Positions 3,609 to 44,637 of a stretch of 64,000 nt of DNA are shown in pieces (position 1 is the first letter of the stretch; each line of letters opens with the position of its first letter). Source of the DNA: Allacma fusca. Lineage: Eukaryota > Arthropoda > Collembola > Symphypleona > Sminthuridae. The DNA lies in NCBI GenBank assembly GCA_947179485.1, contig OX359246.1, positions 310,001 through 374,000 of the forward strand. The letters run 5' to 3'. The notes beneath the pieces are model-generated. The model saw only the letters and a program-made list of their open reading frames with translations. It searched no databases and was not told the origin of the DNA. A program made the position numbers and the translations under genes.

Positions 3609-3610
3609 TA

Positions 3611-13855: not shown

Positions 13856-14120
13856 CTTACGTATGCGTTTCAATGGATGAAGCCACGATGGTACGAGAAA
13901 ATCATCTAGTTTGCGTGGCATTTGAAGTGAATTTATTAGAAAGCAATTTTTATTGCAAATAAATTTTAGATTCCATGTTATACAAACTATTAACGTTGAC
14001 GCACACAGGAATTATGTTGTTGCAACTCCATCGTAACACAGTATATACATGTATAATAAAGAATCCCCATCCGTGTTGTTTTATGGAGAATATAAATGCC
14101 AGCGATTACAGTGTCGGAAC
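13856..14120 (+). repeat. copy B of the long dispersed repeat, first piece
   Basis: It aligns with 3611-3869. Shared landmarks include ACTATTAACGTTGACGCAC and GAATCCCCATCCGT. It ends in TGTCGGAAC (14112-14120), after which the sequence diverges abruptly because a foldback element was inserted. The match to copy A resumes at 36954. Confidence 0.75.
14112..14120. other. left 9-bp target site duplication of the foldback element
   Basis: TGTCGGAAC, repeated exactly at 36954-36962 and present once at the unoccupied paralogous site 3861-3869. Confidence 0.85.
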
Positions 14121-14244
14121 ATGACAAGCAAGTTGTCCCCGAAAACCTATATCCCCCAACATTCAAAAATGGAGAAAAAATTTTATTACCCACCACATGT
14201 GTCAAACTCAAATCATTAATTACCATGCTAGAAAGCGGTACAAA
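14121..14244 (+). repeat. left terminal inverted repeat unit of the foldback element
   Basis: It is the reverse complement of roughly 36834-36953 with about a dozen differences. It contains the landmarks CATTCAAAAATGGAG, ACCCACCACATGTG and CAAATCATTAATTA. The satellite array starts directly after it. Confidence 0.8.
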
Positions 14245-17200
14245 ACTCCAGTTTCAGGGAATTCGGAACAAGTCTGTCAAACTTGACCTTTGACTTTTCC
14301 GGGTGATATTCCTATTCGAATAGATAAGTCGAGTAAAAATGAAAATATTTGAAAAATTCTTGCACAGGCGTAAAGCCCTACCATATTGCTAGCGGGACAA
14401 ACTCCAGTTTCGGGAAATTCGGAACAAGTCTGTCAAACTTGACCTTTGACTTTTCCGGTTGATATTCCTATTTGAATGGATAACTCGAGTAAAAATGAAA
14501 ATATTTCAAAAATTGTTGCACAGGCGTAAACATCTACCATATGGCTAGCGGGACAAACTCCAGTTTCGGGGAATTCGGAACAAATCTGTCAATTATGACT
14601 TTTGACTTTTCCGGGTGATATTCCTATTTGAATGGATAACTCGAGTAAAAATGAAAATATTTGAAAAATTCTTGCACAGGCGTAAAGCCCTACCATATTG
14701 CTAGCGGGACAAACTCCAGTTTCGGGAAATTCGGAACAAGTCTGTCAAACTTGACAATTGACTTTTCCGGGTGATATTCCTATTTGAAAGGATAACTCGA
14801 GTAAAAATGAAAATATTTCAAAAATTCTTGCACAGGCGTAAACCCCTACCATATTGCTAGCCGGACTAACTCCAGTTTTCGGGAATTCGGAACAAGTCTG
14901 TCAAACTTGACCTTTGACTTTTCCGGGTGATATTCCTATTTGAATGGATAACTCGAGTAAAAATGAAAATATTTCAAAAATTCTTGCACAGGCGTAAACC
15001 CCTACCATATTGCTAGCCGGACTAACTCCAGTTTTCGGGAATTCGGAACAAGTCTGTCAAACTTGACCTTTGACTTTTCCGGGTGATATTCCTATTTCAA
15101 TGGATAACTCGAGTAAAAATGAATATATTTCAAAAATTCTTGCACAGGCGTAAAGCCCTACATTATTGCTAGCGGGACAAACTCCAGTTTTGGGGAATTC
15201 GGAACAAGTCTGTCAAACTTGACCTTTGACTTTTCCGGGTGATATTCCTATTTGAATGGATAACTCGAGTAAAAATGAAAATATTTCAAAAATTCTTGCA
15301 CAGGCGTAAAGCCCTACCATATTGCTAGCGGGACAAACTCCAGTTTCGGGAAATTCGGAACAAGTCTGTCAAACTTGACCTTTGACTTTTCCGGGTGACA
15401 TTCCTATTTGAATGGAACATCGAGTAAAAATGAAAATATTTCAAAAATTCTTGCACAGGCGTAAACCCCTACCATATTGCTAGCCGGACTAACTCCAGTT
15501 TTCGGGAATTCGGAACAAGTCTGTCAAACTTGACCTTTGACTTTTCCGGGTGATATTCCTATTTGAATGGATAACTCGAGTAAAAATGAAAATATTTCAA
15601 AAATTCTTGCACAGGCGTAAACCCCTACCATATTGCTAGCCGGACTAACTCCAGTTTTCGGGAATTCGGAACAAGTCTGTCAAACTTGACCTTTGACTTT
15701 TCCGGGTGATATTCCTATTTCAATGGATAACTCGAGTAAAAATGAATATATTTCAAAAATTCTTGCACAGGCGTAAAGCCCTACATTATTGCTAGCGGGA
15801 CAAACTCCAGTTTTGGGGAATTCGGAACAAGTCTGTCAAACTTGACCTTTGACTTTTCCGGGTGATATTCCTATTTGAATGGATAACTCGAGTAAAAATG
15901 AAAATATTTCAAAAATTCTTGCACAGGCGTAAAGCCCTACCATATTGCTAGCAGGACAAACTCCAGTTTCGGGGAATTCGGAACAAGTCTGTCAAACTTG
16001 ACCTTTGACTTTTCCGGGTGATATTCCTATTTGAATGGATAACTCGAGTAAAAATGAAAATATTTCAAAAATTCTTGCACAGGCGTAAACCCCTACATTA
16101 TTGCTAGCGGGACAAACTCCAGTTTTGGGGAATTCGGAACAAGTCTGTCAAACTTGACCTTTGACTTTTCCGGGTGATATTCCTATTTGAATGGATCACT
16201 CGAGTAAAAATAAAAATATTTCAAAAATTCTTTCACAGGCGTAAACCCCTACCATATTGCTAGCCGGACTAACTCCAGTTTTCGGGAATTCGGAACAAGT
16301 CTGTCAAACTTGACCTTTGACTTTTCCGGGTGATATTCCTATTTGAATAGATAACTCGAGTAAAAATGAAAATATTTCAAAAATTATTCCACAGGCGTAA
16401 AGCCCTACTATATTGCTAGCGGGACAAACTCCAGTTTTCGGGAATTCGGAACAAGTCTGTCAAACTTGACCTTTGACGTTTCCGGGTGATATTCCTATTT
16501 GAATGGATAACTATATTGCTAGCGGGACAAACTCCAGTTTTGGGGAATTCGAAACAAGTCTGTCAAACTTGGCCTTTGACTTTTCCGGGTGATATTCCTA
16601 TTTGAATGGATCATTCGAGTAAAAATGAAAATATTTCAAAAATTATTGCACAGGCGTAAAGCCCTACGAGATTGCTAGCGGGACAAACTCCAGTTCCCGG
16701 GAATTCGGAACAAGTCTGTCAAACTTGACCTTTGACGTTTCCGGGTGATATTCCTATTTGAATGGATAACTCGAGTAAAAATGAAAATATTTCAAAAATT
16801 CGTGCACAGGCGTAAACCCCTACCATATCGCTAGCGGGACAAACTCCAGTTTCCCTAAATTCGGAACAAGTCTGTCAAAATTGACCTTTGACTTTTCCGG
16901 GTGATATTCCTATTCGAATAGATAAGTCGAGTAAAAATGAAAATATTTGAAAAATTCTTGCACAGGCGTAAAGCCCTACCATATTGCTAGCGGGACAAAC
17001 TCCAGTTTCGGGAAATTCGGAACAAGTCTGTCAAACTTGACCTTTGACTTTTCCGGTTGATATTCCTATTTGAATGGATAACTCGAGTAAAAATGAAAAT
17101 ATTTCAAAAATTGTTGCACAGGCGTAAACATCTACCATATGGCTAGCGGGACAAACTCCAGTTTCGGGGAATTCGGAACAAATCTGTCAATTATGACTTT

Positions 17201-20200
17201 TGACTTTTCCGGGTGATATTCCTATTTGAATGGATAACTCGAGTAAAAATGAAAATATTTGAAAAATTCTTGCACAGGCGTAAAGCCCTACCATATTGCT
17301 AGCGGGACAAACTCCAGTTTCGGGAAATTCGGAACAAGTCTGTCAAACTTGACCTTTGACTTTTCCGGGTGATATTCCTATTTGAATGGAACATCGAGTA
17401 AAAATGAAAATATTTCAAAAATTCTTGCACAGGCGTAAACCCCTACCATATTGCTAGCCGGACTAACTCCAGTTTTCGCGAATTCGGAACAAGTCTGTCA
17501 AACTTGACCTTTGACTTTTCCGGGTGATATTCCTATTTGAATAGATAACTCGAGTAAAAATGAAAATATTTCAAAAATTATTCCACAGGCGTAAAGCCCT
17601 ACTATATTGCTAGCGGGACAAACTCCAGTTTTCGGGAATTCGGAACAAGTCTGTCAAACTTGACCTTTGACGTTTCCGGGTGATATTCCTATTTGAATGG
17701 ATAACTATATTGCTAGCGGGACAAACTCCAGTTTTGGGGAATTCGAAACAAGTCTGTCAAACTTGGCCTTTGACTTTTCCGGGTGATATTCCTATTTGAA
17801 TGGATCATTCGAGTAAAAATGAAAATATTTCAAAAATTATTGCACAGGCGTAAAGCCCTACGAGATTGCTAGCGGGACAAACTCCAGTTCCCGAGAATTC
17901 GGAACAAGTCTGTCAAACTTGACCTTTGACGTTTCCGGGTGATATTCCTATTTGAATGGAACATCGAGTAAAAATGAAAATATTTCAAAAATTCTTGCAC
18001 AGGCGTAAACCCCTACCATATTGCTAGCCGGACTAACTCCAGTTTTCGGGAATTCGGAACAAGTCTGTCAAACTTGACCTTTGACTTTTCCGGGTGATAT
18101 TCCTATTTGAATAGATAACTCGAGTAAAAATGAAAATATTTCAAAAATTATTCCACAGGCGTAAAGCCCTACTATATTGCTAGCGGGACAAACTCCAGTT
18201 TTCGGGAATTCGGAACAAGTCTGTCAAACTTGACCTTTGACGTTTCCGGGTGATATTCCTATTTGAATGGATAACTATATTGCTAGCGGGACAAACTCCA
18301 GTTTTCGGGAATTCGGAACAAGTCTGTCAAACTTGACCTTTGACGTTTCCGGGTGATATTCCTATTTGAATGGATAACTATATTGCTAGCGGGACAAACT
18401 CCAGTTTTGGGGAATTCGAAACAAGTCTGTCAAACTTGGCCTTTGACTTTTCCGGGTGATATTCCTATTTGAATGGATCATTCGAGTAAAAATGAAAATA
18501 TTTCAAAAATTATTGCACAGGCGTAAAGCCCTACGAGATTGCTAGCGGGACAAACTCCAGTTCCCGGGAATTCGGAACAAGTCTGTCAAACTTGACCTTT
18601 GACGTTTCCGGGTGATATTCCTATTTGAATGGATAACTCGAGTAAAAATGAAAATATTTCAAAAATTCGTGCACAGGCGTAAACCCCTACCATATCGCTA
18701 GCGGGACAAACTCCAGTTTCCCTAAATTCGGAACAAGTCTGTCAAAATTGACCTTTGACTTTTCCGGGTGATATTCCTATTCGAATAGATAAGTCGAGTA
18801 AAAATGAAAATATTTGAAAAATTCTTGCACAGGCGTAAAGCCCTACCATATTGCTAGCGGGACAAACTCCAGTTTCGGGAAATTCGGAACAAGTCTGTCA
18901 AACTTGACCTTTGACTTTTCCGGTTGATATTCCTATTTGAATGGATAACTCGAGTAAAAATGAAAATATTTCAAAAATTGTTGCACAGGCGTAAACATCT
19001 ACCATATGGCTAGCGGGACAAACTCCAGTTTCGGGGAATTCGGAACAAATCTGTCAATTATGACTTTTGACTTTTCCGGGTGATATTCCTATTTGAATGG
19101 ATAACTCGAGTAAAAATGAAAATATTTGAAAAATTCTTGCACAGGCGTAAAGCCCTACCATATTGCTAGCGGGACAAACTCCAGTTTCGGGAAATTCGGA
19201 ACAAGTCTGTCAAACTTGACCTTTGACTTTTCCGGGTGATATTCCTATTTGAATGGAACATCGAGTAAAAATGAAAATATTTCAAAAATTCTTGCACAGG
19301 CGTAAACCCCTACCATATTGCTAGCCGGACTAACTCCAGTTTTCGGGAATTCGGAACAAGTCTGTCAAACTTGACCTTTGACTTTTCCGGGTGATATTCC
19401 TATTTGAATAGATAACTCGAGTAAAAATGAAAATATTTCAAAAATTATTCCACAGGCGTAAAGCCCTACTATATTGCTAGCGGGACAAACTCCAGTTTTC
19501 GGGAATTCGGAACAAGTCTGTCAAACTTGACCTTTGACGTTTCCGGGTGATATTCCTATTTGAATGGATAACTATATTGCTAGCGGGACAAACTCCAGTT
19601 TTGGGGAATTCGAAACAAGTCTGTCAAACTTGGCCTTTGACTTTTCCGGGTGATATTCCTATTTGAATGGATCATTCGAGTAAAAATGAAAATATTTCAA
19701 AAATTCTTGCACAGGCGTAAACCCCTACCATATTGCTAGCGGTACAAACTCCAGTTTTGGGGAATTCAGAACAAGTCTGTCAAACTTGACCTTTGACTTT
19801 TCCGGGTGATATTCCTATTTGAATGGATAATTCGAGTAAAAATGAAAATATTTCAAACATTATTGCACAGGCGTAAACATCTACCATATTGCTAGCGGGA
19901 CAAACTCAAGTTTCCGGGAATTCGGAACAAGTCTGTCAAACTTGACCTTTGACTTTTCCGTGTGATATTCCTATTTGAATGGATAACTCGAGTAAAAATG
20001 AAAATATTTCAAAAATTCTTGCACAGGCGTAAACCCCTACCATATCGCTAGCGGGACAAACTCCAGTTTCCCTAAATTCGGAACAAGTCTGTCAAACTTG
20101 ACCTTTGACTTTTCCGGGTTATATTCCTATTCGAATAGATAAGTCGAGTAAAAATGAAAATATTTGAAAAATTCTTGCACAGGCGTAAAGCCCTACCATA

Positions 20201-23200
20201 TTGCTAGCGGGACAAACTCCAGTTTCGGGGAATTCGGAACAAATCTGTCAAACTTGACCTTTGACTTTTCCGGTTGATATTCCTATTTGAATGGATAACT
20301 CGAGTAAAAATGAAAATATTCCAAAAATTGTTCCACAGGCGTAAACATCTACCATATGGCTAGCGGGACAAACTCCAGTTTCGGGGAATTCGGAACAAAT
20401 CTGTCAATTATGACTTTTGACTTTTCCGGGTGATATTCCTATTTGAATGGATAACTCGAGTAAAAATGAAAATATTTGAAAAATTCTTGCACAGGCGTAA
20501 AGCCCTACCATATTGCTAGCGGGACAAACTCCAGTTTCGGGAAATTCGGAACAAGTCTGTCAAACTTGACCTTTGACTTTTCCGGGTGATATTCCTATTT
20601 GAATGGAACATCGAGTAAAAATGAAAATATTTCAAAAATTCTTGCACAGGCGTAAACCCCTACCATATTGCTAGCCGGACTAACTCCAGTTTTCGGGAAT
20701 TCGGAACAAGTCTGTCAAACTTGACCTTTGACTTTTCCGGGTGATATTCCTATTTGAATAGATAACTCGAGTAAAAATAAAAATATTTCAAAAATTATTC
20801 CACAGGCGTAAAGCCCTACCATATTGCTAGCGGGACAAACTCCAGTTTTCGGGAATTCGGAACAAGTCTGTCAAACTTGACCTTTGACGTTTCCGGGTGA
20901 TATTCGTATTTAAATGGATAACTATATTGCTAGCGGGACAAACTCCAGTTTTCGGGAATTCGGAACAAGTCTGTCAAACTTGACCTTTGACTTTTCCGGG
21001 TGATGTTCCTATTTGAATAGGTAACTCGAGTAAAAATGAAAATATTTCAAAAATTATTCCACAGGCGTAAAGCCCTACCATATTGCTAGCGGGACAAACT
21101 CCAGTTTTCGGGAATTCGGAACAAGTTTGTCAAACTTGACTTTTGACGTTTCCGGGTGATATTCCCATTTAAATGGATAACTATATTGCTAGCGGGACAA
21201 ACTCCAGTTTTGGGGAATTCGAAACAAGTCTGTCAAACTTGACCTTTGACTTTTCCGTGTGATATTCCTATTTGAATGGATAATTCGAGTAAAAATGAAA
21301 ATATTTCAAAAATTATTGCACAAGCGTAAAGCCCTACGAGATTGCTAGCGGGATAAGCTCCAGTTCCCGGGAATTCGGAACAAGTCTGTCAAACTTGACC
21401 TTTGACGTTTCCGGGTGATATTCCTATTTGAATGGATAACTCGAGTAAAAATGAAAATATTTCAAAAATTCTTGCACAGGCGTAAACCCCTACCATATTG
21501 CTAGCGGTACAAACTCCAGTTTTGGGGAATTCAGAACAAGTCTGTCAAACTTGACCTTTGACTTTTCCGGGTGATATTCCTATTTGAATGGATAACTCGA
21601 GTAAAAATGAAAATATTTCAAACATTATTGCACAGGCGTAAACATCTACCATATTGCTAGCGGGACAAACTCAAGTTTCCGGGAATTCGGAACAAGTCTG
21701 TCAAACTTGACCTTTGACTTTTCCGTGTGATATTCCTATTTGAATGGATAACTCGAGTAAAAATGAAAATATTTCAAAAATTATTCCACAGGCGTAAAGC
21801 CCTACCATATTGCTAGCGGAACAAACTCCAGTTTCGGGGAACTCGGAACAAGTCTGTTGAACTTGACCTTTGACGTTTCCGGGTGATATTCCTATTTGAA
21901 TGGATAACTCAAGTAAAAATGAAAATATTTCAAAAATTCTTGCACAGGCGTAAACCCCTACCATATTGCTAGCGGGACAAACTCCAGTTTTGGGGAATTC
22001 AGAACAAGTCTGTCAAACTTGACCTTTGACTTTTCCGTGTGATATTCCTATTTGAATGGATAACTCGAGTAAAAATGAAAATATTTCAAAAATTATTCCA
22101 CAGGCGTAAAGCCCTACCATATTGCTAGCGGGACAAACTCCAGTTTTCGGGAATTCGGAACAAGTCTGTCAAACTTGACCTTTGACGTTTCCGGGTGATA
22201 TTCGTATTTAAATGGATAACTATATTGCTAGCGGGACAAACTCCAGTTTTCGGGAATTCGGAACAAGTCTGTCAAACTTGACCTTTGACTTTTCCGGGTG
22301 ATATTCCTATTTGAATAGGTAACTCGAGTAAAAATGAAAATATTTCAAAAATTATTCCACAGGCGTAAAGCCCTACCATATTGCTAGCGGGACAAACTCC
22401 AGTTTTCGGGAATTCGGAACAAGTCTGTCAAACTTGACCTTTGACGTTTCCGGGTGATATTCCCATTTAAATGGATAACTATATTGCTAGCGGGACAAAC
22501 TCCAGTTTTGGGGAATTCGAAACAAGTCTGTCAAACTTGACCTTTGACTTTTCCGTGTGATATTCCTATTTGAATGGATAATTCGAGTAAAAATGAAAAT
22601 ATTTCAAAAATTATTGCACAAGCGTAAAGCCCTACGAGATTGCTAGCGGGATAAACTCCAGTTCCCGGGAATTCGGAACAAGTCTGTCAAACTTGACCTT
22701 TGACGTTTCCGGGTGATATTCCTATTTGAATGGATAACTCGAGTAAAAATGAAAATATTTCAAAAATTCTTGCACAGGCGTAAACCCCTACAATATTGCT
22801 AGCGGTACAAACTCCAGTTTTGGGGAATTCAGAACAAGTCTGTCAAACTTGACCTTTGACTTTTCCGGGTGATATTCCTATTTGAATGGATAACTCGAGT
22901 AAAAATGAAAATATTTCAAACATTATTGCACAGGCGTAAACATCTACCATATTGCTAGCGGGACAAACTCAAGTTTTGGGAAATTCGGAACAAGTCTGTC
23001 AAACTTGACCTTTGACTTTTCCGTGTGATATTCCTATTTCAATGGATAACTCGAGTAAAAATGAAAATATTTCAAAAATTATTCCACAGGCGTAAAGCCC
23101 TACCATATTGCTAGCGGAACAAACTCCAGTTTCGGGGAACTCGGAACAAGTCTGTTGAACTTGACCTTTGAAGTTTCCGGGTGATATTCCTATTTGAATG

Positions 23201-26082
23201 GATAACTCGAGTAAAAATGAAAATATTTCAAAAATTCTTGCACAGGCGTAAACCCCTACCATATTGCTAGCGGGACAAACTCCAGTTTTGGGGAATTCAG
23301 AACAAGTCTGTCAAACTTGACCTTTGACTTTTCCGTGTGATATTCCTATTTGAATGGATAACTCGAGTAAAAATGAAAATATTTCAAAAATTATTCCACA
23401 GGCGTAAAGCCCTACCATATTGCTAGCGGGACAAACTCCAGTTTTCGGGAATTCGGAACAAGTCTGTCAAACTTGACCTTTGACGTTTCCGGGTGATATT
23501 CGTATTTAAATGGATAACTATATTGCTAGCGGGACAAACTCCAGTTTTCGGGAATTCGGAACAAGTCTGTCAAACTTGACCTTTGACTTTTCCGGGTGAT
23601 ATTCCTATTTGAATAGGTAACTCGAGTAAAAATGAAAATATTTCAAAAATTATTCCACAGGCGTAAAGCCCTACCATATTGCTAGCGGGACAAACTCCAG
23701 TTTTCGGGAATTCGGAACAAGTCTGTCAAACTTGACCTTTGACGTTTCCGGGTGATATTCCCATTTAAATGGATAACTATATTGCTAGCGGGACAAACTC
23801 CAGTTTTGGGGAATTCGAAACAAGTCTGTCAAACTTGACCTTTGACTTTTCCGTGTGATATTCCTATTTGAATGGATAATTCGAGTAAAAATGAAAATAT
23901 TTCAAAAATTATTGCACAAGCGTAAAGCCCTACGAGATTGCTAGCGGGATAAACTCCAGTTCCCGGGAATTCGGAACAAGTCTGTCAAACTTGACCTTTG
24001 ACGTTTCCGGGTGATATTCCTATTTGAATGGATAACTCGAGTAAAAATGAAAATATTTCAAAAATTCTTGCACAGGCGTAAACCCCTACCATATTGCTAG
24101 CCGGACTAAGTCCAGTTTTCGGGAATTCGGAACAAGTCTGTCAAACCTGACCTTTGACTTTTCCGGGTGATATTTCTATTTGAATAGATAACTCGAGTAA
24201 AAATGAAAATATTTCAAAAATTATTCCACAGGCGTAAAGCCCTACTATATTGCTAGCGGGACAAACTCCAGTTTTCGGGATTTCGGAACAAGTCTGTCAA
24301 ACTTGACCTTTGACGTTTCCGGGTGATATTCCTATTTAAATGGATAACTATATTGCTAGCGGGACAAACTGCAGTTTTGGGGAATTCGGAACAAGTCTGT
24401 CAAACTTGACCTTTGACGTTTCCGGGTGATATTCCTATTTGAATGGATAACTCGAGTAAAAATGAAAATATTTCAAAAATTCTTGCACAGGCGTAAAGCC
24501 CTACCATATTGCTAGCGGGACAAACTCCAGTTCCCGGGAATTCGGAACAAGTCTTTCAAACTTGACCTTTGACGTTTCCGGGTGATATTCCTATTTGAAT
24601 GGATAACTCGAGTAAAAATGAAAATATTTCAAAAATTCTTGCACAGGCGTAAACCCCTACCATATCGCTAGCGGGACAAACTCCAGTTTCCCTAAATTCG
24701 GAACAAGTCTGTCAAACTTGACCTTTGACTTTTCCGGGTTATATTCCTATTCGAATGGATAAGTCGAGTAAAAATGAAAATATTTAAAAAATTCTTGCAC
24801 AGGCGTAAAGCCCTACCATATTGCTAGCGGGACAAACTCCAGTTTCAGGAAATTCGGAACAAGTCTGTTAAACTTGACCTTTGACTTTTCCGGTTGATAT
24901 TCCTATTTGAATGGATAACTCGAGTAAAAATGAAAATATTTCAAAAATTGTTGCACAGGCGTAAACATCTACCATATGGCTAGCGGGACAAACTCCAGTT
25001 TCGGGGAATTCGGAACAAATCTGTCAATTATGACTTTTGACTTTTCCGGGTGATATTCATATTTGAATGGATAACTCGAGTAAAAATGAAAATATTTCAA
25101 AAATTGTTGCACATGGGTAAAGCCCTACCATATTGCTAGCGGGACAAACTGCAGTTTTGGGGAATTCGGAACAAGTCTGTCAAACTTGACCTTTGACGTT
25201 TCCGGGTGATATTCCTATTTGAATGGATAACTCGAGTAAAAATGAAAATATTTCAAAAATTCTTGCACAGGCGTAAAGCCCTACCATATTGCTAGCGGGA
25301 CAAACTCCAGTTCCCGGGAATTCGGAACAAGTCTTTCAAACTTGACCTTTGACGTTTCCGGGTGATATTCCTATTTGAATGGATAACTCGAGTAAAAATG
25401 AAAATATTTCAAAAATTCTTGCACAGGCGTAAACCCCTACCATATCGCTAGCGGGACAAACTCCAGTTTCCCTAAATTCGGAACAAGTCTGTCAAACTTG
25501 ACCTTTGACTTTTCCGGGTTATATTCCTATTCGAATGGATAAGTCGAGTAAAAATGAAAATATTTAAAAAATTCTTGCACAGGCGTAAAGCCCTACCATA
25601 TTGCTAGCGGGACAAACTCCAGTTTCAGGAAATTCGGAACAAGTCTGTTAAACTTGACCTTTGACTTTTCCGGTTGATATTCCTATTTGAATGGATAACT
25701 CGAGTAAAAATGAAAATATTTCAAAAATTGTTGCACAGGCGTAAACATCTACCATATGGCTAGCGGGACAAACTCCAGTTTCGGGGAATTCGGAACAAAT
25801 CTGTCAATTATGACTTTTGACTTTTCCGGGTGATATTCATATTTGAATGGATAACTCGAGTAAAAATGAAAATAGTTCAAAAATTGTTGCACATGGGTAA
25901 AGCCCTACCATATTGCTAGCGGGACAAACTCCAGTTTTGGGGAATTCGGAACAAGTCTGTCAAACTTGACCTTTGACTTTTCCGGGTGACATTCCTATTT
26001 AAATGGATAACTCGAGTAAAAATGAAAATATTTCAAAAATTATTTCACAGGCGTGAACCCCTACCATATTGCTAGCGGGACA
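14245..26082 (+). repeat. left 156-bp satellite array with a 103-bp variant and higher-order repeats
   Basis: Monomers recur every 156 bp, for example at 14245, 14401, 14557, 14713 and 14869, from ACTCCAGTTT to the next ACTCCAGTTT. A 103-bp variant, in which ...GGATAAC joins directly to TATATTGCTAGC (53 bp missing), occurs at 16428-16530 and repeatedly after that. Larger units are visible: ~1867 bp (16801 to 18668), ~1350 bp (18691 to 20041), 1298 bp three times (21021, 22319, 23617; equal to 7x156 + 2x103) and 780 bp twice (24361-25140, 25141-25920; 5x156). Roughly 80 monomers are present. In the reverse direction one frame is open for 51 of 52 codons; I do not regard it as coding. Confidence 0.9.
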
Positions 26083-27020
26083 ATTCGAATTCAATTTCAA
26101 TATTGGTAATACTTTTTTAGTCTTATTATACCTGTAGCACATGTATGTTGTACCGCGTAGCTAAAATATATTATTTTAGGGAAACAGCTATTAGGACGTA
26201 TAAATAAATGAACATGTATCAGGAGCTATTATGTATGTGTGTATGTAATGTTTTATTGATTTGGGCTACTGCCCCTTCAATAGTTGGATACAGTGAGTTA
26301 GGATTTTAACTTATAAGCTTACTAAGTTCAAGAAAGAAATTGTATATAGAAAGGCAACAGTCTAGATCATTTGTTTGTATTAAATTATACCACTTCATGG
26401 TAATATCGTCATCAGTCTTAATTTCTCCAGCAATCATAAATAGAGACTTTCTTAGGTAACTTAATTCACTGCACGAGAAGATGTAGTGATTCCAATTTTT
26501 TTGATCTATAGGTGCGTTGCAGAGGTTGCAAATATCACCTTGGGGAGATTCCCGCTCGAGCTAATTTCGCCCAAAGAATCGAATGGGATACTGAATCGAA
26601 AGCTCCAGAGAGGTCAATAAAAAAACAGTAAAGGAGGATTATGACAAATTAGAATTAGAAACAGGATCCAATTCAATTTTATACACAATTTCGTCGTAAT
26701 TTATATTTACTCATTAAATTGTATAAAGTGTGTGCGACATGCATTGTAGTTCATTAACCAAGATGAATAAAATGTAAAGAGTAGAGTTCTGGTTGAATTT
26801 GATGGTAACCGTAGTTGAGAAGTACAAGGTGGGCATTTGCAAGATACTAATAGTTACTATTAGCACGGTACAACCAGCAATTGCTGGATCAGCGAGAAAA
26901 TATAAATAGGGTAGGCAGTTAATAGTTGTATACATACAATAGCATAATATTAGCATAACCCTTGTAAAAGTGTAGACTAACGTACGGCAAAATGATTTTT
27001 TAATTTAATTTTGCTTTAAA
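26083..27020 (+). repeat. inner inverted arm of the foldback element, left
   Basis: It matches 29541-29967 in reverse, with shared words such as CCGTACGTTAGTC and CAGCAATTGCTGG. Compared with the right arm it carries an extra ~410 bp (26234-26643), a retrotransposon fragment. Confidence 0.75.
26234..26643 (-). mobile_element. internally deleted non-LTR (LINE) retrotransposon fragment
   Basis: Read on the minus strand, about 26632-26557 encodes IDLSGAFDSVSHSILWAKL, a standard reverse-transcriptase block of non-LTR elements (F.DL..AFD.V.H..LW). It then jumps, with a frame change, to a C-terminal Cys/His segment (26530-26306) with CNLCN...WNHYIFSC and a TAA stop, typical of the C-terminus of jockey/I/CR1-type ORF2. 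The middle of ORF2 is missing. The 3' tail is AT/CA-rich (AATAAAACATTACATACACA). It is absent from the opposite arm. GGAGCTATTATG on one side and GGAGGATTATG on the other look like an imperfect target duplication. Confidence 0.7.
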
Positions 27021-27616
27021 ACTTTTATCAGCAAATCAGAAAATGCACAATTGGCACAATGTTTCTCAAATATTTCTAAGTTGACTAAATACTACACAAC
27101 AAATGTATTTACATTTTCAGACATTGGACGGTACCTCGAAGAGGTTTTTGCAATTGAAAGGCACTGTTAATTGCGCCATATTCAGGCCAGTACCCATGTG
27201 CGTGTAATTTTACGCGCATTATATATTTACCGGCACTAAGTCAAACAGTCGAGCGATAACAGTTGCTTAGATGTATATATTATAAATTTTGTTTTGCGAT
27301 GCATTTTGTATCACCTGCTCCATATGTTGTTGCATACACTATTTTGTACGTAGACATAAATCATTTGCATTTATTGCTTCTGACTTGACGCGTCGACTAT
27401 TCAATTTCTAGTTTAGTCTGCACATTCAACTCATTTTCTCATCTCCATATCTCCATATACATATCCTACTTACTAAGTTGAAACAGTGGGCCGGGATTGT
27501 TTACGCCTTCGTCTTGGTGGAATACGAATTTATTACGCGAATTTTTTATTGGCTGAGCCAGCAGTAACTGGCTAAATAAACTACTAATTTTTTTTATTAA
27601 CAAAAATATATTTATA

Positions 27617-27648
27617 CTAGCAATCAGGCCATCCGCCGAGGCGGATGG
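27617..27648 (-). mobile_element. Helitron-like 3' terminus
   Basis: On the minus strand a GC-rich hairpin, CCATCCGCC-TC-GGCGGATGG, is followed 8 nt later by CTAG and then T. A short hairpin a few bases before CTRR|T is the diagnostic 3' end of Helitrons. The body would extend to higher coordinates, but no 5' terminus was identified. Confidence 0.55.
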
Positions 27649-28059
27649 ATTTCATGTCTGGTGGCAATGAATTTTAATTGTAATAATAATTTGAATGCAA
27701 CAAATAATATTTTATACAAATACCCTGGAAGTTCTATTTTTGCAGTAATTACACAGAATTATTATATAAAATAACAAAACAGCTAAATCATCTTATGAAG
27801 GGTTTAACTATCTAATTTGCCCCTTCTGTAGCTTATTTCAGATATTTTCTAATATGAAATAATTACTGTCACAGCTGTTTCGTAAATATCTATTTCTAGT
27901 AACTTCATTGCTGGAGTGGTTTTATCTGTTGTGACAATAAACAAAAATCATATGGAAACTGGCGTGGAGTTTTATAGCCCATCAAAAAAAATAAGCTCAT
28001 CCAATTTATGTTAAAGGGTCAATATCGGATCAGCTGTTTTTAAATTAGATTAGATGCAT

Positions 28060-28091
28060 CATAGTGCATAGATGATGATCTATGCACTATG
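28060..28091. repeat. perfect 14-bp inverted repeat
   Basis: CATAGTGCATAGAT and ATCTATGCACTATG are separated by 4 nt and form a perfect hairpin. Function unknown; possibly the centre of a small inverted-repeat element. Confidence 0.6.
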
Positions 28092-29273
28092 GGACGCATG
28101 TAGCTATGTTGACAATAAATAAATTTCAGAAACGTTTGTAAATTAATCTGACGTTGTGGGGTATAAACGTTTTTTAAAATAATTAAATGCTTTAATTAAT
28201 ACTTTTTAAATGGGATCTCCAATGAAAATGGTACTTTTTAGAATTTAGCCAACGATATGGTGCTTTTAAAACTTAAACTATTTAAGCAAACCAAATGTTG
28301 TTGCCTGTCTTGTTTTGAAATTATATTAGTTAATATGAATTATGCTGGACAACTTTAATAAAATCATTAAACCTGGTCACAAAATTTTTGATTCTAGGAA
28401 AAAACGTGTTTCAACATTATGTCGCTAATATTGTTGCAAAAAGGTGGTAACTATTTTCAATATTGCAGTGTAATTTCAATATATTCAGGACAGCGACTCT
28501 CTCGCTAAAGTTGAGCACCAGTGACGAATTATTTTTAAAATCGAGTGGGCTAATTATTAATATATATATATGGTTATAACCATGTATAACCATATGGTTA
28601 TGTGAGCCAGTCAACTGTATGCACGAAAGTGTAGGCTATTCGTTGGAGATTTTGTTAACGTGGACGTGAAACATTCAAACATGGCTTACAAAAAATGTGA
28701 ACATACTTAGGTTCTTGATTATTACGTCACTTGATTTTTGACCACGAACGGGTAACAATATTTGCACCATCCAGAACGCTATCAGTGCATGACAGCTACA
28801 TCATTTAAATTCATTTAATGTCTAATATGTATTGATGGACGATTTACCCAAAGTAAGAATTTAATAGTGTTGGTTAAAATATGATGACTGATCATATATC
28901 TAAGCCACACTGTACTAAATATTCAAAGGCGTACATAATAAGTAAGTCGTAGTTTATTCTAATAAACCATACAAATTCCAAGATGCAAGATATAGGTAGC
29001 TTGTTTATCATTGCGGTATGTATTTCTGTTCTCTCTTTTTTACATTATTTTTACATTTTTGTATTCTGAAATGGCATTATTTTTTGTTGACTTGAACAGA
29101 ATTAAGTTGAAAACTTGGTTACTTTACCTAAAGCCTGCCCAAGTCAACAAAAAAGAAATGTTAAAATAAAAATATGCTTTGATTTTTATTTAAAGTATTT
29201 TTTTCTATAAAAAATGAAAGAAAAATGAACCGCTATGCTTCAACATGGCATGTACATAAGGACGACAACCATC

Positions 29274-29299
29274 ACTACTACTACTACTACTACTACTAC
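29274..29299. repeat. (ACT)n microsatellite
   Basis: About eight uninterrupted ACT/CTA trinucleotides. Confidence 0.85.
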
Positions 29300-29540
29300 G
29301 ATGAAGCTTTTAGTAAGAAGGATTATTTTTTTTAATTAAAAAAATGTTAAAACTATTTTTTTAACTTAAACCAAAATATTAAGATTATTGTTTTTAGTTA
29401 AAAAAACTTATGCACTATTCATGCAATTAAAAAGCATTATGCAGTATCAAATGCCGCAACATACCCACGGGCTGCCGTCTGACCAGGATGGTCCGCTCTT
29501 TCAAATTAACAGAGAGAAAAATATTTATTTTAAAAAATTA

Positions 29541-29967
29541 TTAAAGCAAAATTAAATTAAAAAATCATTTTGCCGTACGTTAGTCTACACTTTAACAAGG
29601 GTTATGCTAATATTTTGCTATTGTTTGTATACAACTATTTACTGCCTACACTTTTTATATTTTCGCGCTGATCCAGCAATTGCTGGTTGTACCGTGCTCC
29701 TAGTAACTATTAGTATCTTGCAAATGCCCACCTTGTACTTCTCAACTACGGTTACCATCAAATTTACCAGAACACTCCAGATCCTGTATCTAATTCTAAT
29801 TTGTCATAATAGCTCCTGATCCTTGTTCATTTATTTATACGTCCTAAAAGCTGTTTCCCTAAAATCAAATATTTTAGCTACGCGGTACCACATACATGTG
29901 CTACACGTATAATAAGACTAAAAAGATATTAACAATATTAAAATCAAATTCGAAAACACTTAAACCC
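29541..29967 (-). repeat. inner inverted arm of the foldback element, right
   Basis: It is the reverse complement of 26083-27020 without the ~410-bp retrotransposon insertion. It joins directly to the inverted satellite array. Confidence 0.75.
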
Positions 29968-32900
29968 AGCAGCAATGTGGTAGGGATTTACGCATGTACA
30001 ATAATTTTTGAAATATTTTCATTTTTACTCGAGTTATCCATTCAAATAGGAATATCACCCGGAAAAGTCAAAGGTCAAGTTTGACAGACTTGTTCCGAAT
30101 TCCCCGAAACTGGAGTTAGTCCGGCTAGCAATATCGTAGGGCTTAACGCCTGTGCGATAATGTTTGAAATATTTTCATTTTTACTCGAGTTATCCATTCA
30201 AATAGGAATATCACCCGGAAAAGTCAAAGGTCAAGTTTGACAGACTTGTTCTGAATTCCCCAAAACTGGAGTTTGTCCCGCTAGCAATATGGTAGGGGTT
30301 TACGCCTGTGCAAGAATTTTTGAAATATTTTCATTTTTACTCGAGTTATCCATTCAAATAGGAATATCACCCGGAAACGTCAAAGGTCAAGTTTGACAGA
30401 CTTGTTCCGAATTCCCGGAAACTGGAGTTTGTTCCGCTAGCAATCTCGTAGGGCTTTACCCATGTGCAACAATTTTTGAAATATTTTCATTTTTACTCGA
30501 GTTATCCATTCAAAAAGGAATATCACCCGGAAAAGTCAAAGGTCAAGTTTGACAGACTTGTTCCGAATTCCGGGAAACTGGAATTTGTCCCGCTAGCGAT
30601 ATGGTAGGGGTTTACGCCCGTGCAATAATGTTTGAAATATTTTCATTTTTACTCGAGATATCCATTCAAATAGGAATATCATCCGGAAAAGTCAAAGGTC
30701 AAGTTTGACAGACTTGTTCTGAATTTCCCAAAACTGGAGTTTGTCCCGCTAGCAATATGGTAGGGGTTTACGCCTGTGCAACAATTTTTGAAATTATTTC
30801 ATTTTTACTCGACTTATCTATTCGAATAGGAATATCACCCGGAAAAGTCAAAGGTCAAGTTTGACAGACTTGTTCCGAATTCCGGGAAACTGGAGTTTGT
30901 CCCGCTAGCTATATGGAAGGGGTTTATGCCTGTTCAAGAATTTTTGAAGTATTTTCATTTTTACTCGAGTTATCCAATCAAATAGAAATATCACCCGGAA
31001 AAGTCAAAGGTTAAGTTTGACAGACTTGTTCCGAATTCCCCGAAACTGGAGTTTGTCCCATTAGCAATATGGTAGATGTTTACGCCTGTGCAAGAATTCT
31101 TGAAATATTTTCATTTTTACTCGAGTTTTCCATTCAAATAGGAATATCCACCCGGAAAAGTCAAAGGTCAAGTTTGACAGACTTGTTCTGAATTCCCCAA
31201 AACTGGAGTTTGTCCCGCTAGCAATATGGTAGGGGTTTACGCCTGTGCAACAATTTTTGAAATTATTTCATTTTTACTCGACTTATCTATTCGAATAGGA
31301 ATATCACCCGGAAAAGTCAAAGGTCAAGTTTGACAGACTTGTTCCGAATTCCGGGAAACTGGAGTTTGTCCCGCTAGCTATATGGAAGGGGTTTATGCCT
31401 GTTCAAGAATTTTTGAAGTATTTTCATTTTTACTCGAGTTATCCATTCAAATAGAAATATCACCCGGAAAAGTCAAAGGTTAAGTTTGACAGACTTGTTC
31501 CGAATTCCCCGAAACTGGAGTTTGTCCCATTAGCAATATGGTAGATGTTTACGCCTGTGCAAGAATTCTTGAAATATTTTCATTTTTACTCGAGTTTTCC
31601 ATTCAAATAGGAATATCCACCCGGAAAAGTCAAAGGTCAAGTTTGACAGACTTGTTCTGAATTCCCCAAAACTGGAGTTTTTCCCGCTAGCAATTTGGTC
31701 GGGCTTTACCCATGTGCAACAATTTTTGAAATATTTTCATTTTTACTCGAGTTTTCCATTCAAATAGGAATATCACCCGGAAAAGTCAAAGGTCAAGTTT
31801 GACAGACTTGTTCTGAATTTCCCAAAACTGGAGTTTGTCCCGCTAGCAATATGGTAGGGGTTTACGCCTGTGCAACAATTTTTGAAATTATTTCATTTTT
31901 ACTCGACTTATCTATTCGAATAGGAATATCACCCGGAAAAGTCAAAGGTCAAGTTTGACAGACTTGTTCCGAATTCCGGGAAACTGGAGTTTGTCCCGCT
32001 AGCTATATGGAAGGGGTTTATGCCTGTTCAAGAATTTTTGAAGTATTTTCATTTTTACTCGAGTTATCCAATCAAATAGAAATATCACCCGGAAAAGTCA
32101 AAGGTTAAGTTTGACAGACTTGTTCCGAATTCCCCGAAACTGGAGTTTGTCCCATTAGCAATATGGTAGATGTTTACGCCTGTGCAAGAATTCTTGAAAT
32201 ATTTTCATTTTTACTCGAGTTTTCCATTCAAATAGGAATATCCACCCGGAAAAGTCAAAGGTCAAGTTTGACAGACTTGTTCTGAATTCCCCAAAACTGG
32301 AGTTTGTCCCGCTAGCAATATGGTAGGGGTTTACGCCTGTGCAACAATTTTTGAAATTATTTCATTTTTACTCGACTTATCTATTCGAATAGGAATATCA
32401 CCCGGAAAAGTCAAAGGTCAAGTTTGACAGACTTGTTCCGAATTCCGGGAAACTGGAGTTTGTCCCGCTAGCTATATGGAAGGGGTTTATGCCTGTTCAA
32501 GAATTTTTGAAGTATTTTCATTTTTACTCGAGTTATCCATTCAAATAGAAATATCACCCGGAAAAGTCAAAGGTTAAGTTTGACAGACTTGTTCCGAATT
32601 CCCCGAAACTGGAGTTTGTCCCATTAGCAATATGGTAGATGTTTACGCCTGTGCAAGAATTCTTGAAATATTTTCATTTTTACTCGAGTTTTCCATTCAA
32701 ATAGGAATATCCACCCGGAAAAGTCAAAGGTCAAGTTTGACAGACTTGTTCTGAATTCCCCAAAACTGGAGTTTTTCCCGCTAGCAATTTGGTCGGGCTT
32801 TACCCATGTGCAACAATTTTTGAAATATTTTCATTTTTACTCGAGTTTTCCATTCAAATAGGAATATCACCCGGAAAAGTCAAAGGTCAAGTTTGACAGA

Positions 32901-35900
32901 CTTGTTCCGAATTCCCGGAAACTTGTGTTTGTCCCGCTAGCAATATGGTAGGGCTTTACCCATGTGCAACAATTTTTGAAATATTTTCATTTTTACTCGA
33001 GTTATCTATTCAAATAGGAATATCACCCGGAAAAGTCAAAGGTCAAGTTTGACAGACTTGTTCCGAATTCCCGGAAACTGCAGTTTGTCCCGCTAGCGAT
33101 ATGGTAGGGGTTTACGCCTGTTCAAAAAATTTTGAAAATTTTTTTTTATTTTTACTCGAGTTATCCATTCAAATAGGAATATCACCTGGAAAAGTCAAAG
33201 GTCAAGTTTGACAGACTTGTTCCGAATTCCCGAAAACTGGAGTTTGTCCCGCTAGCGATATGGTAGGGGTTTACGCCTGTGCAAGAATTTTGGAAATATT
33301 TTCATTTTTACTCGAGTTATCCATTCAAACAGGAATATCACCCGGAAAAGTGAAAGGTCAAGTTTGACAGACTTGTTCCGAATTCCCCGAAACTAGAATT
33401 TATCCCGCTAGCAATATGGATTGGGCTTTACGCCTGTGCAAGAATTTTTGAAATATTTTCATTTTTACTCGGGTTATCCATTCAAATAGGAATATCACCC
33501 GGAAAAGTCAAAGGTCAAGTTTGACAGACTTGTTCCGAATTCCCCGAAACTGGAGGATGTCCCGCTAGCAATATGGTAGATGTTTACGCCTGTGCAAGAA
33601 TTTTTGAAATATTTTCATTTTTACTCGAGTTATCCATTCAAATAGGAATATCACCCGGAAATATCAAAGGTCAAGTTTGACAGACTTGTTCCGAGTTCCC
33701 CGAAACTTGAGTTTGTCCCGCTAGCAATATGGTAGGGCTTTACCCATGTGCAACAATTTTTGAAATATTTTCATTTTTACTCGACTTATCTATTCGAATA
33801 GGAATATCACCCGGAAAAGTCAAAGGTCAAGTTTAAAAGACTTGTTCCGAATTCCGGGAAACTGGAGTTTGTCCTGCTAGCGATATGGTAGGGGTTTACG
33901 CCTGTGCAAGAATTTTTGAAATATTTTCATTTTTACTCGAGTTATCCATTCAAAAAGGAATATCAACCGGAAAAGTCAAAGGTCAAGTTTGACAGACTTG
34001 TTCCGAATTCCCCGAAACTGGAGTTTGTCCCATTAGCAATATGGTAGATGTTTACGCCTGTGCAAGAATTTTTGAAATATTTTCATTTTTACTCGAGTTA
34101 TCCATTCAAATAGGAATATCACCCGGAAAAGTCAAAGGTCAAGTTTGACAGGCTTGTTCCGAATTCCCCGAAACTAGAATTTGTCCCGCTAGCAATATGG
34201 TAGGGCTTTACGCCTGTGCAAGAATTTTTGAAATATTTTCATTTTTACTCGGGTTATCCATTCAAATAGGAATATCACCCGGAAAAGTCAAAGGTCAAGT
34301 TTGACAGACTTGTTCCGAATTCCCCGAAACTGGATTTTGTCCCGGTAGCAAGATGGTAGATGTTTACGCCTGTGCAAGAATTTTTGAAATATTTTCATTT
34401 TTACTCGACTTATCTATTCAAATAGGAATGTCACCCGGAAAAGTCAAAGGTCAAGTTTGACAGACTTGTTTCGAATTCCCCGAAACTGGAAGATGTCCCG
34501 CTAGCAATATGGTAGATGTTTACGCCTGTGCAAGAATTTTTGAAATATTTTCATTTTTACTCGAGTTATCCATTCAAATAGGAATATCACCCGGAAAAGT
34601 CAAAGGTCAAGTTTGACAGACTTGTTCCGAGTTCCCCGAAACTTGAGTTTGTCCCGCTAGCAATATGGTAGGGCTTTACCCATGTGCAACAATTTTTGAA
34701 ATATTTTCATTTTTACTCGACTTATCTATTCGAATAGGAATATCACCCGCAAAAGTCAAAGGTCAAGTTTAAAAGACTTGTTCCGAATTCCGGGAAACTG
34801 GAGTTTGTCCCGCTAGCGATATGGTAGGGGTTTACGCCTGTGCAAGAATTTTTGAAATATTTTCATTTTTACTCGAGTTATCCATTCAAATAGGAATATC
34901 ACCCGGAAAAGTGAAAGGTCAAGTTTGACAGACATGTTCCGAATTCCCCGAAACTAGAATTTGTCCCGCTAGCAATATGGTAGGGCTTTACGCCTGTGCA
35001 AGAATTTTTGAAATATTTTCATTTTTACTCGAGTTATCCATTCAAATTGGAATATCACCCGGAAAAGTCAAAGGTCAAGTTTGACAGACTTGTTCCGAAT
35101 TCCCGAAACTGGAGTTAGTCCGGCTAGCAATATGGTAGGGGTTTACGCCTGTGCAAGAATTTTTGAAATATTTTCATTTTTACTCGAGTTATCCGTTCAA
35201 ATAGGAATATCACCCGGAAAAGTCAAAGGTCAAGTTTGCAGACTTGTTCCGAGTTCCCCGAAATTGGAGTTTGTCCCGCTAGCAATATGGTAGGGCTTTA
35301 CCCATGTGCAACAATTTTGGAAATATTTTCATTTTTACTCGAGTTATCCATTCAAAAAGGAATATCACCAGGAAAAGTCAAAGGTGAAGTTTGACAGACT
35401 TGTTCCGAATTCCCCGAAACTGGAGTTTGTCCCGCTAGCAATATGGTAGATGTTTACGCCTGTGCAAGAATTTTTGAATTATTTTCATTTTAACTCGAGT
35501 TATCCATTCAAATAGGAATATCTCCCGGAAAAGTCAAAGGTCAAGTTTGACAGACTTGTTCCGAATTCCCCGAAACTGGAGTTTGTTCCGCTAGCAATAT
35601 GGTAGATGTTTACGCCTGTGCAAGAATTTTTGAAATATTTTCATTTTTACTCGACTTATCTATTCAAATAGGAATATCACCCGGAAAAGTCAAAGGTCAA
35701 GTTTGACAGACTTGTTCCGAATTCCCGGAAACTGCAGTTTGTCCCGCTAGCGATATGGTAGGGGTTTACGCCTGTGCAAAACTTTTTGAAATATTTTCAT
35801 TTTTACTCGAGTTATCCATTCAAATATGAATATCACCCGGAAAAGTCAAAGGTCAAGTTTGACAGACTTGTTCCGAATTCCCGAAAACTGGAGTTAGTCC

Positions 35901-36833
35901 GGCAAGCAATATGGTAGGGGTTTACGCCTGTGCAAGAATTTTTGAAATATTTTCATTTTTACTCGAGTTATCCATTCAAATAGGAATATCACCCGGAAAA
36001 GTCAAAGGTCAAGTTTGACAGACTTGTTCCGAGTTCCCCGAAACTGGAGTTTGTCCCGCTAGCAATATGGTAGGGCTTTACCTATGTGCAACAATTTTTG
36101 AAATATTTTCATTTTTACTCGAGTTATCCATTCAAAAAGGAATATCACCCGGAAAAGTCAAAGGTGAAGTTTGACAGACTTGTTCCGAATTCCCGGAAAC
36201 TTGTGTTTGTCCCGCTAGCAATATGGTAGATGTTTACGCCTGTGCAATAATGTTTGAAATATTTTCATTTTTACTCGAGTTATCCATTCAAATAGGAATA
36301 TCACCCGGAAAAGTCAAAGGTCAAGTTTGACAGACTTGTTCCGAATTCCCGAAAACTGGAGTTAGTCCGGCTAGCATTATGGTAGGGGTTTACGCCTGTG
36401 CAAGAATTTTTGAAATATTTTCATTTTTACTCGAGTTATTCATTCAAATAGGAATATCACCCGGAAAAGTCAAAGGTCAAGTTTGACAGACTTGTTCCGA
36501 ATTCCCGGAAACTTGAGTTTGTCCCGCTAGCAATATGGTAGATGTTTACGCCTGTGCAATAATGTTTGAAATATTTTCATTTTTACTCGAGTTATCCATT
36601 CAAATAGGAATATCACCCGGAAAAGTCAAAGGTCAAGTTTGACAGACTTGTTCCGAATTCCCCGAAACTGGAGTTTGTCCCGCTAGCAATATGGTCGGGC
36701 TTTACCCATGTGCAACAATTTTTGAAATATTTTCATTTTTACTCGAGTTATCCATTCAAATAGGAATATCACCCTGAAAAGTCAAAGGTGAAGTTTGGCA
36801 GACTTGTTCCGAATTCCCCGAAACTGGAGTTTG
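29968..36833 (-). repeat. right satellite array, inverted relative to the left array
   Basis: The same 156-bp satellite in the opposite orientation; for example GAGTTATCCA recurs at 30031 and 30187. Monomers are close to full length, and I did not see the 103-bp variant that is frequent on the left. A ~1094-bp higher-order unit (7 monomers) is duplicated, starting near 30791 and again near 31885. Roughly 44 monomers. The array-specific variants imply separate amplification of the two arms. Confidence 0.88.
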
Positions 36834-36953
36834 TACCGCTTGCTAGCATGTTAATTAATGATTTGAATTTTGCACATGTGGTGGGTATTAAAATTTTTGC
36901 TCCATTTTTGAATGTTGGGGGATATAGTTGTTCGGGGACAACTTGCTCTTCAT
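36834..36953 (-). repeat. right terminal inverted repeat unit of the foldback element
   Basis: It is the reverse complement of 14121-14244 and ends ...TTGCTCTTCAT just before the 9-bp duplication. Confidence 0.8.
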
Positions 36954-36962
36954 TGTCGGAAC
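36954..36962. other. right 9-bp target site duplication of the foldback element
   Basis: TGTCGGAAC, identical to 14112-14120. The sequence after it (TTGAACAGAGCTTCTAG) matches 3870 onward in copy A. Confidence 0.85.
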
Positions 36963-37323
36963 TTGAACAGAGCTTCTAGTGATTACGGATGTTCACAAGT
37001 GGTCCAATTTGGAAATCCCGCTTGTTTCAAGGTCCTGATCCAAATGTTCTATCCGGTAATTATCTGGCAATGACGGTAAACATTGTAAACTGAAAACGAC
37101 GAGATGCATTTAACTTAATTTCCTTCGGAAGAATTCTTCTCCAGAAATGATAATCTATCATTTCTCAGTCGTTCCTCTTCAGAAGGGATCAGAAGTTGTG
37201 AGCTTGTGCTGGCATATGCCTGTTAAAATTTGTTTTTCAAAATGTGATTACATCGTTCAAAGGGGTTCGATTCTCAGAAAAATGCTCCATTAAAGATCAT
37301 TTAAGAGAGATTTCACTTTATGC

Positions 37324-42648: not shown

Positions 42649-42655
42649 TTTAGGA

Positions 42656-43736: not shown

Positions 43737-43744
43737 ATTTAGGA

Positions 43745-44216: not shown

Positions 44217-44219
44217 TTA

Positions 44220-44634: not shown

Positions 44635-44637
44635 TTA

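What the first reader, a model, noticed from the sequence alone, without database searches (positions are those of the whole stretch)
14121..36953. A 22.8-kb foldback element made of opposed satellite arrays, with its empty site in the same window
The termini match over about 120 bp. Perfect 9-bp direct repeats TGTCGGAAC flank the element, and a paralogous sequence at 3611-4540 is continuous through TGTCGGAAC (3861-3869). The left flank matches 13856-14120 and the right flank matches 36954 onward. So a unit that looks like a satellite block is in fact one transposed element. Satellite arms of 11.8 and 6.9 kb are very large for a Foldback element and suggest that satellite arrays can be dispersed or seeded by transposition.
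Basis: partly seen in the sequence, partly recalled or inferred. Interest (0 to 1): 0.88.

Follow-up and report, generated by a model that had tools for sequence, protein, structure and literature searches.

The report
Giant satellite-armed foldback transposon insertion
In the genome of an arthropod, probably a springtail, a jumping gene with no recognisable enzyme of its own has landed in a site that is still empty in an old copy nearby, and its two inverted ends have each swollen into long arrays of satellite DNA, a clear example of how a transposon can seed satellite blocks.

Summary
Positions 14121-36953 (22,833 bp) are one insertion between perfect 9-bp repeats TGTCGGAAC; an old paralogue runs straight through a single TGTCGGAAC at 3861-3869. 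Each inverted arm has three parts: a 113-bp terminus (90% identical), an opposed array of a 156-bp satellite (80 left, 44 right monomers kept), and an inner domain (91-95%). The 2.5-kb centre shows no known protein domain.

This is the plan of foldback elements such as Tetris of Drosophila virilis. Sequenced arms in the papers I read reach 1.2-1.7 kb, against about 12.9 and 7.4 kb here, though fibre hybridisation already showed long arrays inside Tetris.

That a satellite block moved as a unit is not shown. Duplicates of at least 98.5% over 468 bp cover 94% of the left arm and 48% of the right within the same arm, and none between arms; 103-bp monomers occur only on the left. The arrays grew separately in each arm, perhaps after insertion. 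'Seeded by transposition' fits; 'dispersed by transposition' stays open. Other copies could not be searched. Verdict: real; a large variant of a known kind.

The parts
14112..14120 (+). left copy of 9-bp target site duplication TGTCGGAAC
   Evidence: exact match
36954..36962 (+). right copy of 9-bp target site duplication TGTCGGAAC
   Evidence: exact match
3609..4458 (+). empty-site paralogue; single TGTCGGAAC at 3861-3869
   Evidence: colinear matches to both flanks meeting at the 9-mer
14121..14233 (+). left terminal domain of the TIR (113 bp)
   Evidence: 90.3% identical to right terminus
14234..26083 (+). left satellite array, 156-bp unit, with 12 shortened 103-bp units and recent segmental duplications
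   Evidence: TRF; monomer tiling; blocks
26084..27026 (+). left inner domain of the TIR, carrying about 410 bp of extra sequence (26228-26637, probably a LINE remnant) and a further extra stretch from about 26669 to 26785
   Evidence: alignment; identities
27027..29533 (.). unique central region, no recognisable coding domain
   Evidence: 29 of 29 ORFs of 40 aa or more overlapping 26000-30000 scanned against Pfam, none above a curated cut-off
29534..29955 (-). right inner domain of the TIR
29971..36840 (-). right satellite array in opposite orientation, 156-bp unit, no 103-bp units
   Evidence: TRF; monomer tiling
36841..36953 (-). right terminal domain of the TIR (113 bp)

Best explanation
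The unit is a non-autonomous foldback-type DNA transposon. Shown: it sits between a perfect 9-bp target duplication at a site that is unoccupied in a paralogous stretch of the same window; its ends are inverted repeats built of a terminal, a tandem-repeat and an inner domain; no known protein domain was recognised in its centre. Inferred: a transposase made elsewhere, which cuts its target with a 9-bp stagger (most likely Mutator/Rehavkus-like), recognised the 113-bp termini and inserted an element whose arms already held some satellite monomers. Each arm then lengthened on its own, by unequal exchange or slippage that duplicated blocks of several monomers (up to 2.15 kb), giving arrays of 11.8 and 6.9 kb. 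The transposon seeded the satellite; whether a full-size array ever moved is undecided.
For: TSD and empty site. Tripartite TIRs; in both arms the array starts 113 bp from the terminus and at the same point of the unit. Centre without recognised domain. Growth within arms: 468-bp windows at 98.5% give 20 left-left, 7 right-right and 0 left-right blocks; they cover 94.2% of the left arm (14121-26083), 47.5% of the right (29971-36953), and 0% between arms, also at 96.5%; 12 short monomers among 80 left, 0 among 44 right; identical full-length monomer pairs 33 LL, 10 RR, 0 LR in one cutting phase; 14 arm switches on the monomer tree against a mean of 36 and a minimum of 30 in 500 label shuffles. 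Several monomer lineages predate the separation of the arms or are exchanged: mean identity RR 0.921 is no higher than LR 0.924.
Against: One insertion only; the terminal unit has no further match in the window outside the arms (E 1e-8), and the host genome could not be searched. No transposase was found, so the enzyme is inferred from TSD length alone. The termini begin ATG, while PMC13359780 reports conserved G/C in the first three bases of most arthropod MULEs. Arms are not wholly separate: with 300-bp windows at 96.5% there are 33 left-right blocks, the longest 438 bp; at 95.5% over 468 bp about 35% of each arm has a cross-arm match; and one monomer cut in another phase is identical in both arms, with further cross-arm pairs at 99.4%. 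Homogenisation within an arm by gene conversion could imitate recent growth.
Confidence: 0.78

Rival explanations
1. The element transposed as a finished unit of about 22.8 kb with both long satellite arrays in place, so satellite blocks are dispersed by cut-and-paste.
For: The TSD is intact, 9 of 9. Monomer diversity within the right arm equals that between arms (RR 0.921, LR 0.924), so multi-monomer arrays probably existed before the arms became independent; the within-arm duplications could also have happened in the donor copy.
Against: 94% of the left arm lies in duplications of at least 98.5% inside that arm, none between arms, whereas the TIR domains differ by 5-10%: the left array in particular was rebuilt after the arms separated. 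The arms also differ in length and in the 103-bp units.
Confidence: 0.25
2. Two satellite arrays were placed in opposition by an inversion or by array reorganisation, with no transposition; the 9-bp repeat is chance.
For: A small rearrangement with inverted duplicates does lie nearby (37324-37601 and 38591-38868).
Against: Matching non-satellite termini and inner domains, a perfect 9-bp repeat exactly at both termini (2e-6 at a fixed place) and an uninterrupted paralogue.
Confidence: 0.03
3. A transposon inserted into, or captured, an existing genomic satellite, and the arms are captured satellite rather than amplified TIR repeats.
For: The terminal domain shares no sequence with the monomer above shuffles, unlike Tetris, where 37 bp are shared.
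Against: Both arms start the array at the same point of the unit and the same distance from the terminus, as expected if the array was part of one TIR that was copied in inverted form. The arms have no match elsewhere in the window (E 1e-8), a small sample of the genome.
Confidence: 0.2
4. The structure is a misassembly of reads across a repeat.
For: No reads are available here; arrays of this length are error-prone in assemblies.
Against: Monomers of the two arms differ by about 8% and the arms differ in length; both termini carry the TSD and the flanks match the paralogue. The exact copy number may still be wrong.
Confidence: 0.05

Closest known systems
Tetris, foldback element of Drosophila virilis (PMC4079207)
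   Same: Non-autonomous; TIR of flanking, tandem-repeat (about 220 bp) and inner domains; centre without coding capacity; TSDs of 8-10 bp; internal repeats amplified into satellite-like arrays; fibre-FISH shows long repeat arrays between two flanking domains, described as within Tetris (abstract, passages, sections 14 and 20).
   Different: Sequenced Tetris TIRs reach 1,735 bp; arrays of up to 66 copies were found in the assembly, and the authors suggest that amplification may have disrupted the element. Here arms of about 12.9 and 7.4 kb are sequenced in one copy with both termini and a perfect TSD. Unit 156 bp, and no homology found between terminus and unit.
Tm1, Mutator/Foldback family of root-knot nematodes (PMC3169594)
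   Same: TSDs mostly 9 bp (8-10 bp in 45 of 53), composite TIRs with variable numbers of tandem repeats, unequal between the two ends; mean TIR identity within an element 93% (passages).
   Different: Repeat unit of about 14 bp, a described copy of 1,080 bp, short asymmetric outer motifs, members with a putative transposase known.
Rehavkus elements (described in PMC6446971)
   Same: 9-bp TSD, arthropod and annelid hosts, a minisatellite before the 3' TIR (passages).
   Different: TIRs of 26-400 bp, transposase with PHD finger; no transposase to compare here, and arrays lie in both arms.
Galileo of Drosophila (PMC3573991)
   Same: Foldback-like TIRs, some with two or three tandem copies of about 210 bp, numbers changing independently in the two TIRs (passages).
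   Different: P superfamily, flanked by 7-bp sequences; longest TIRs about 1.26 kb.
Helitron/Helentron-borne satellite-like arrays (PMC12628747 passages; PMC7492417 listing only)
   Same: A transposon carries and seeds satellite-like arrays.
   Different: A different class of transposon; that it lacks TIRs and TSDs is recalled, not taken from a call.

Membership tests
Foldback-type elements (structural class) | long TIRs made largely of tandem repeats, with distinct outer and inner domains | tested here: met
Foldback-type elements (structural class) | target site duplication and unoccupied site | tested here: met
   (one insertion)
Foldback-type elements (structural class) | dispersed multi-copy family | not testable with these tools
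   own-genome search did not complete; no second copy in the window
Mutator-like elements (MULE) | TSD of 8-11 bp | tested here: met
   9 bp; range from PMC6446971
Mutator-like elements (MULE) | MULE transposase in the element or in an autonomous partner with the same termini | tested here: inconclusive
   no Pfam domain above cut-off in 29 of 29 ORFs of 40 aa or more; a partner elsewhere could not be searched
Mutator-like elements (MULE) | conserved G/C in the first three bases of the terminus, reported for most arthropod MULEs | tested here: not met
   termini begin ATG; criterion from PMC13359780, not universal
Rehavkus | 9-bp TSD with minisatellite near a TIR | tested here: inconclusive
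   TSD fits; arrays lie within both TIRs rather than before the 3' TIR only
Rehavkus | transposase with PHD finger | not testable with these tools
   no coding partner available
P superfamily / Galileo | 7-bp TSD (Galileo) | tested here: not met
   9 bp; 7 bp in PMC3573991

The most novel reading that the evidence does not exclude
A cut-and-paste transposase moved a foldback element whose arms were already kilobase-scale satellite arrays, so satellite blocks of 20 kb and more can be carried to new sites as discrete, TSD-flanked units, and each landing site founds an independently evolving inverted pair of satellites.
Probability: 0.25. Interest if true: 0.75.

Novelty: new variant of a known kind. 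Interest (0 to 1): 0.45.

Why it matters
How satellite arrays reach new chromosomal places is an open question. This locus gives a clean case: one defined insertion with target duplication and empty site, and two sister arrays that start at the same point of the same unit and then grew separately. Comparing left with right array is a built-in control for how satellites expand. If other copies in the same genome share array structure, that would be direct evidence that satellite blocks travel by transposition; if they have short arms, it shows growth in place. It also warns that opposed satellite arrays in assemblies may be transposon arms.

Tried and rejected
Searching public collections for the satellite: an 18-base piece gave 1 viral-contig and 20 prokaryote-contig matches. 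With a satellite dimer as query, each of the 21 loci matched over only about 18-31 bases at the searched site, plus shorter matches, so they were judged chance. Searching printed text for three short pieces of terminus and unit: 0 papers. Rfam: no match at gathering score. Pfam on the centre: only sub-threshold matches (Ac110_PIF 17.7 bits against 25, tRNA_lig_CPD 17.6 against 23, DUF6460 11.7 against 26.7; SDH_protease 11.2 against 31.3, PH_17 11.9 against 22.4; HTH_24 11.9 against 21.9), judged chance. Terminal domain derived from the monomer: no homology above shuffles, score 11, with 153 and 170 of 300 shuffles as good for the two termini. Ancestral order of monomers shared between arms: no correlation of positions (Spearman 0.15, p 0.22; -0.03, p 0.86). 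The idea that the arms share nothing recent was softened (see evidence against). A first search for near-identical blocks with megablast gave no right-right blocks; the ungapped scan found 7, so one search was set aside. One search matched flanks that I had cut at the element's ends, so the exact 9-bp overlap there is partly by construction; the uncut search is used instead. Dating the insertion from TIR divergence was rejected, because TIRs of a donor may already differ. The Gypsy pol search did not identify the host. The LINE reading of 26228-26637 rests on recalled reverse-transcriptase motifs in the frames; Pfam gave nothing for the 84-aa ORF.

Full report
OBSERVATION. The 9-mer TGTCGGAAC occurs at 14112-14120, 36954-36962 and 3861-3869 on the + strand, and not on the other strand. 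The first two copies flank 14121-36953 (22,833 bp). In the uncut window, 3609-3873 matches 13854-14124 (75.5%, 273 columns) and 3861-4458 matches 36954-37552 (68.5%, 639 columns with gaps). So the right match starts exactly at the duplication, and the left match ends 4 bases past it (TTGA in the paralogue, ATGA in the element; three of four alike). Joining the flanks with one repeat removed aligns through the junction without a gap. At a fixed place this 9-mer has a probability of 2e-6 from base composition. The bases next to the duplication differ between the two sides, so it is 9 bp, not longer.

ANATOMY. From outside inwards the element has: a 113-bp terminal domain, 90.3% identical between ends (11 mismatches); an array of a 156-bp unit, 14234-26083 on the left and 29971-36840 on the right in opposite orientation; an inner domain, 26084-26227 against 29816-29955 (90.6%) and 26786-27026 against 29534-29776 (95.0%); and a unique centre, 27027-29533. 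The left inner domain holds about 410 bp (26228-26637) that the right lacks, and further extra sequence from about 26669 to 26785. The 410 bp look like a LINE remnant: a reverse-transcriptase-like stretch can be read in the printed frames, a recalled motif, and Pfam found nothing in its 84-aa ORF. All 29 ORFs of 40 aa or more overlapping 26000-30000 were scanned against Pfam, 4, 10, 10 and 5; none reached a family's cut-off. The element is therefore taken as non-autonomous.

HOW THE ARRAYS GREW. Tiling the arms gave 132 pieces, of which the 124 with 95 bases or more were kept, 80 left and 44 right (8 fragments dropped). In both arms the array starts 113 bp from the terminus at the same point of the unit. 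Twelve units on the left are shortened to 103 bp, none on the right. Mean identity was 0.935 within left, 0.921 within right and 0.924 between arms. Nearest neighbours lie in the same arm for 0.89 of monomers, against 0.54 on average and 0.69 at most in 500 label shuffles. On a FastTree tree, arm changes number 14 against a mean of 36 and a minimum of 30 in 500 shuffles. Ungapped windows of 468 bp at 98.5% give 20 left-left and 7 right-right blocks, the longest 2,154 bp (99.0%) and 1,249 bp (98.9%), and no left-right block. Such windows cover 94.2% of the left arm (14121-26083) and 47.5% of the right (29971-36953); between arms none is found at 96.5% or above, and about 35% of each arm is covered at 95.5%. 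With shorter windows (300 bp, 96.5%) 33 left-right blocks appear, the longest 438 bp.

Two things follow. Recent growth was largely private to each arm. But because right-right identity is no higher than left-right, several monomer lineages must be older than the separation of the arms, or arms exchange units now and then; in another cutting phase (61 monomers) one unit is identical across arms and further cross-arm pairs reach 99.4%. The positions of best cross-arm partners do not correlate, so no ancestral order was detected.

MECHANISM. Shown: insertion at a defined site with a 9-bp duplication; tripartite inverted termini; mostly arm-private duplication. Inferred: mobilisation in trans by a transposase with a 9-bp staggered cut. 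By TSD length, Mutator-like elements (8-11 bp) and Rehavkus (9 bp, arthropods and annelids, with a minisatellite) are the best candidates (passages of PMC6446971). Against this, the termini start ATG, whereas PMC13359780 reports conserved G/C in the first three bases of most arthropod MULEs (passages). Also inferred: growth by unequal exchange or slippage. The size at insertion cannot be told from one copy. The 5-10% divergence of the TIR domains reflects time since the two ends were alike and need not date the insertion.

COMPARISON. Tetris of D. virilis (abstract, passages, sections 14 and 20 of PMC4079207) has the same plan, 8-10-bp TSDs and repeats that became a satellite, and its abstract claims the first evidence for foldback elements generating satellites. 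Its sequenced TIRs reach 1,735 bp. Arrays of up to 66 copies were found in the assembly, fibre-FISH shows long arrays flanked by two flanking domains and labelled as within Tetris, and the authors suggest that amplification may have disrupted the element. So long arrays inside a foldback element are not new in principle; what this locus adds is the sequence of both giant arms in one copy with termini, perfect TSD and empty site, and the comparison of the two arms. Galileo TIRs reach about 1,264 bp (passages, PMC3573991), arthropod MULE TIRs 1,193 bp in the text and 1,527 bp in the table of PMC13359780, and Tm1 has mostly 9-bp TSDs with 14-bp repeats (passages, PMC3169594). A 2025 review (passages, PMC12628747) lists transposon-to-satellite routes and cites Tetris. 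In the listings of my literature searches, no title or opening of an abstract reports foldback arms of this length; these cover open-licence papers only, the lists were capped, and I opened seven papers in part.

HOST. The ORF 1508-2344 carries a DUF7869 domain. Its best relatives are three proteins of the springtail Allacma fusca (61, 55 and 53% identity; 5 hits in all). The Gypsy element at 48572-58791 has only distant relatives (34-44% identity among the 120 listed of 456). The host is thus probably an arthropod near springtails; I could not name it. The own-genome search did not complete.

SURROUNDINGS. The flanking paralogy continues in order as 3609-7642 against 13854-60167, with one stretch inverted and several interruptions. 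These include this element, a second foldback-like unit at 40446-45215, and a young Gypsy element with identical 548-bp LTRs. The window is thus a nest of insertions in an old duplicated stretch.

VERDICT. It is a new, very large variant of a known kind.

Noticed in passing
40446-45215: A second foldback-like structure: 279-bp inverted ends (91%) followed by opposed short-period arrays (CCCTAACTCC-like units at 40844-41338 and about 43736-44221) around a centre of about 2.4 kb; no target duplication seen at its ends. Opposed tandem arrays inside inverted ends thus occur twice in this window.
   Followed up: partly
37324-38868: Relative to the paralogue, 37602-38590 is inverted and flanked by 278-bp inverted duplicates (37324-37601, 38591-38868; 97.5%), as expected from an inversion through staggered breaks (recalled mechanism); it lies about 370 bp from the element's right end.
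   Followed up: partly
48572-58791: Complete-looking Ty3/Gypsy element with identical 548-bp LTRs and a probable 4-bp target duplication CTAT read from the flanks printed; two long overlapping ORFs with zinc knuckle, protease, RT, RNase H and integrase domains.
   Followed up: partly
9695-11813: Inverted repeats of about 460 bp with a long perfectly identical core around a spacer of about 1.2 kb; no clear target duplication seen.
   Followed up: partly
1508-2344: ORF of 278 aa with DUF7869, 61% identical to a protein of the springtail Allacma fusca.
   Followed up: partly
46758-47225: ORF of 155 aa that resembles the C-terminal part of an arthropod LINE (recalled resemblance; no Pfam match).
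   Followed up: no
26228-26637: About 410 bp present only in the left inner domain, bounded by a short ATTATG repeat, probably a LINE remnant on the - strand.
   Followed up: partly
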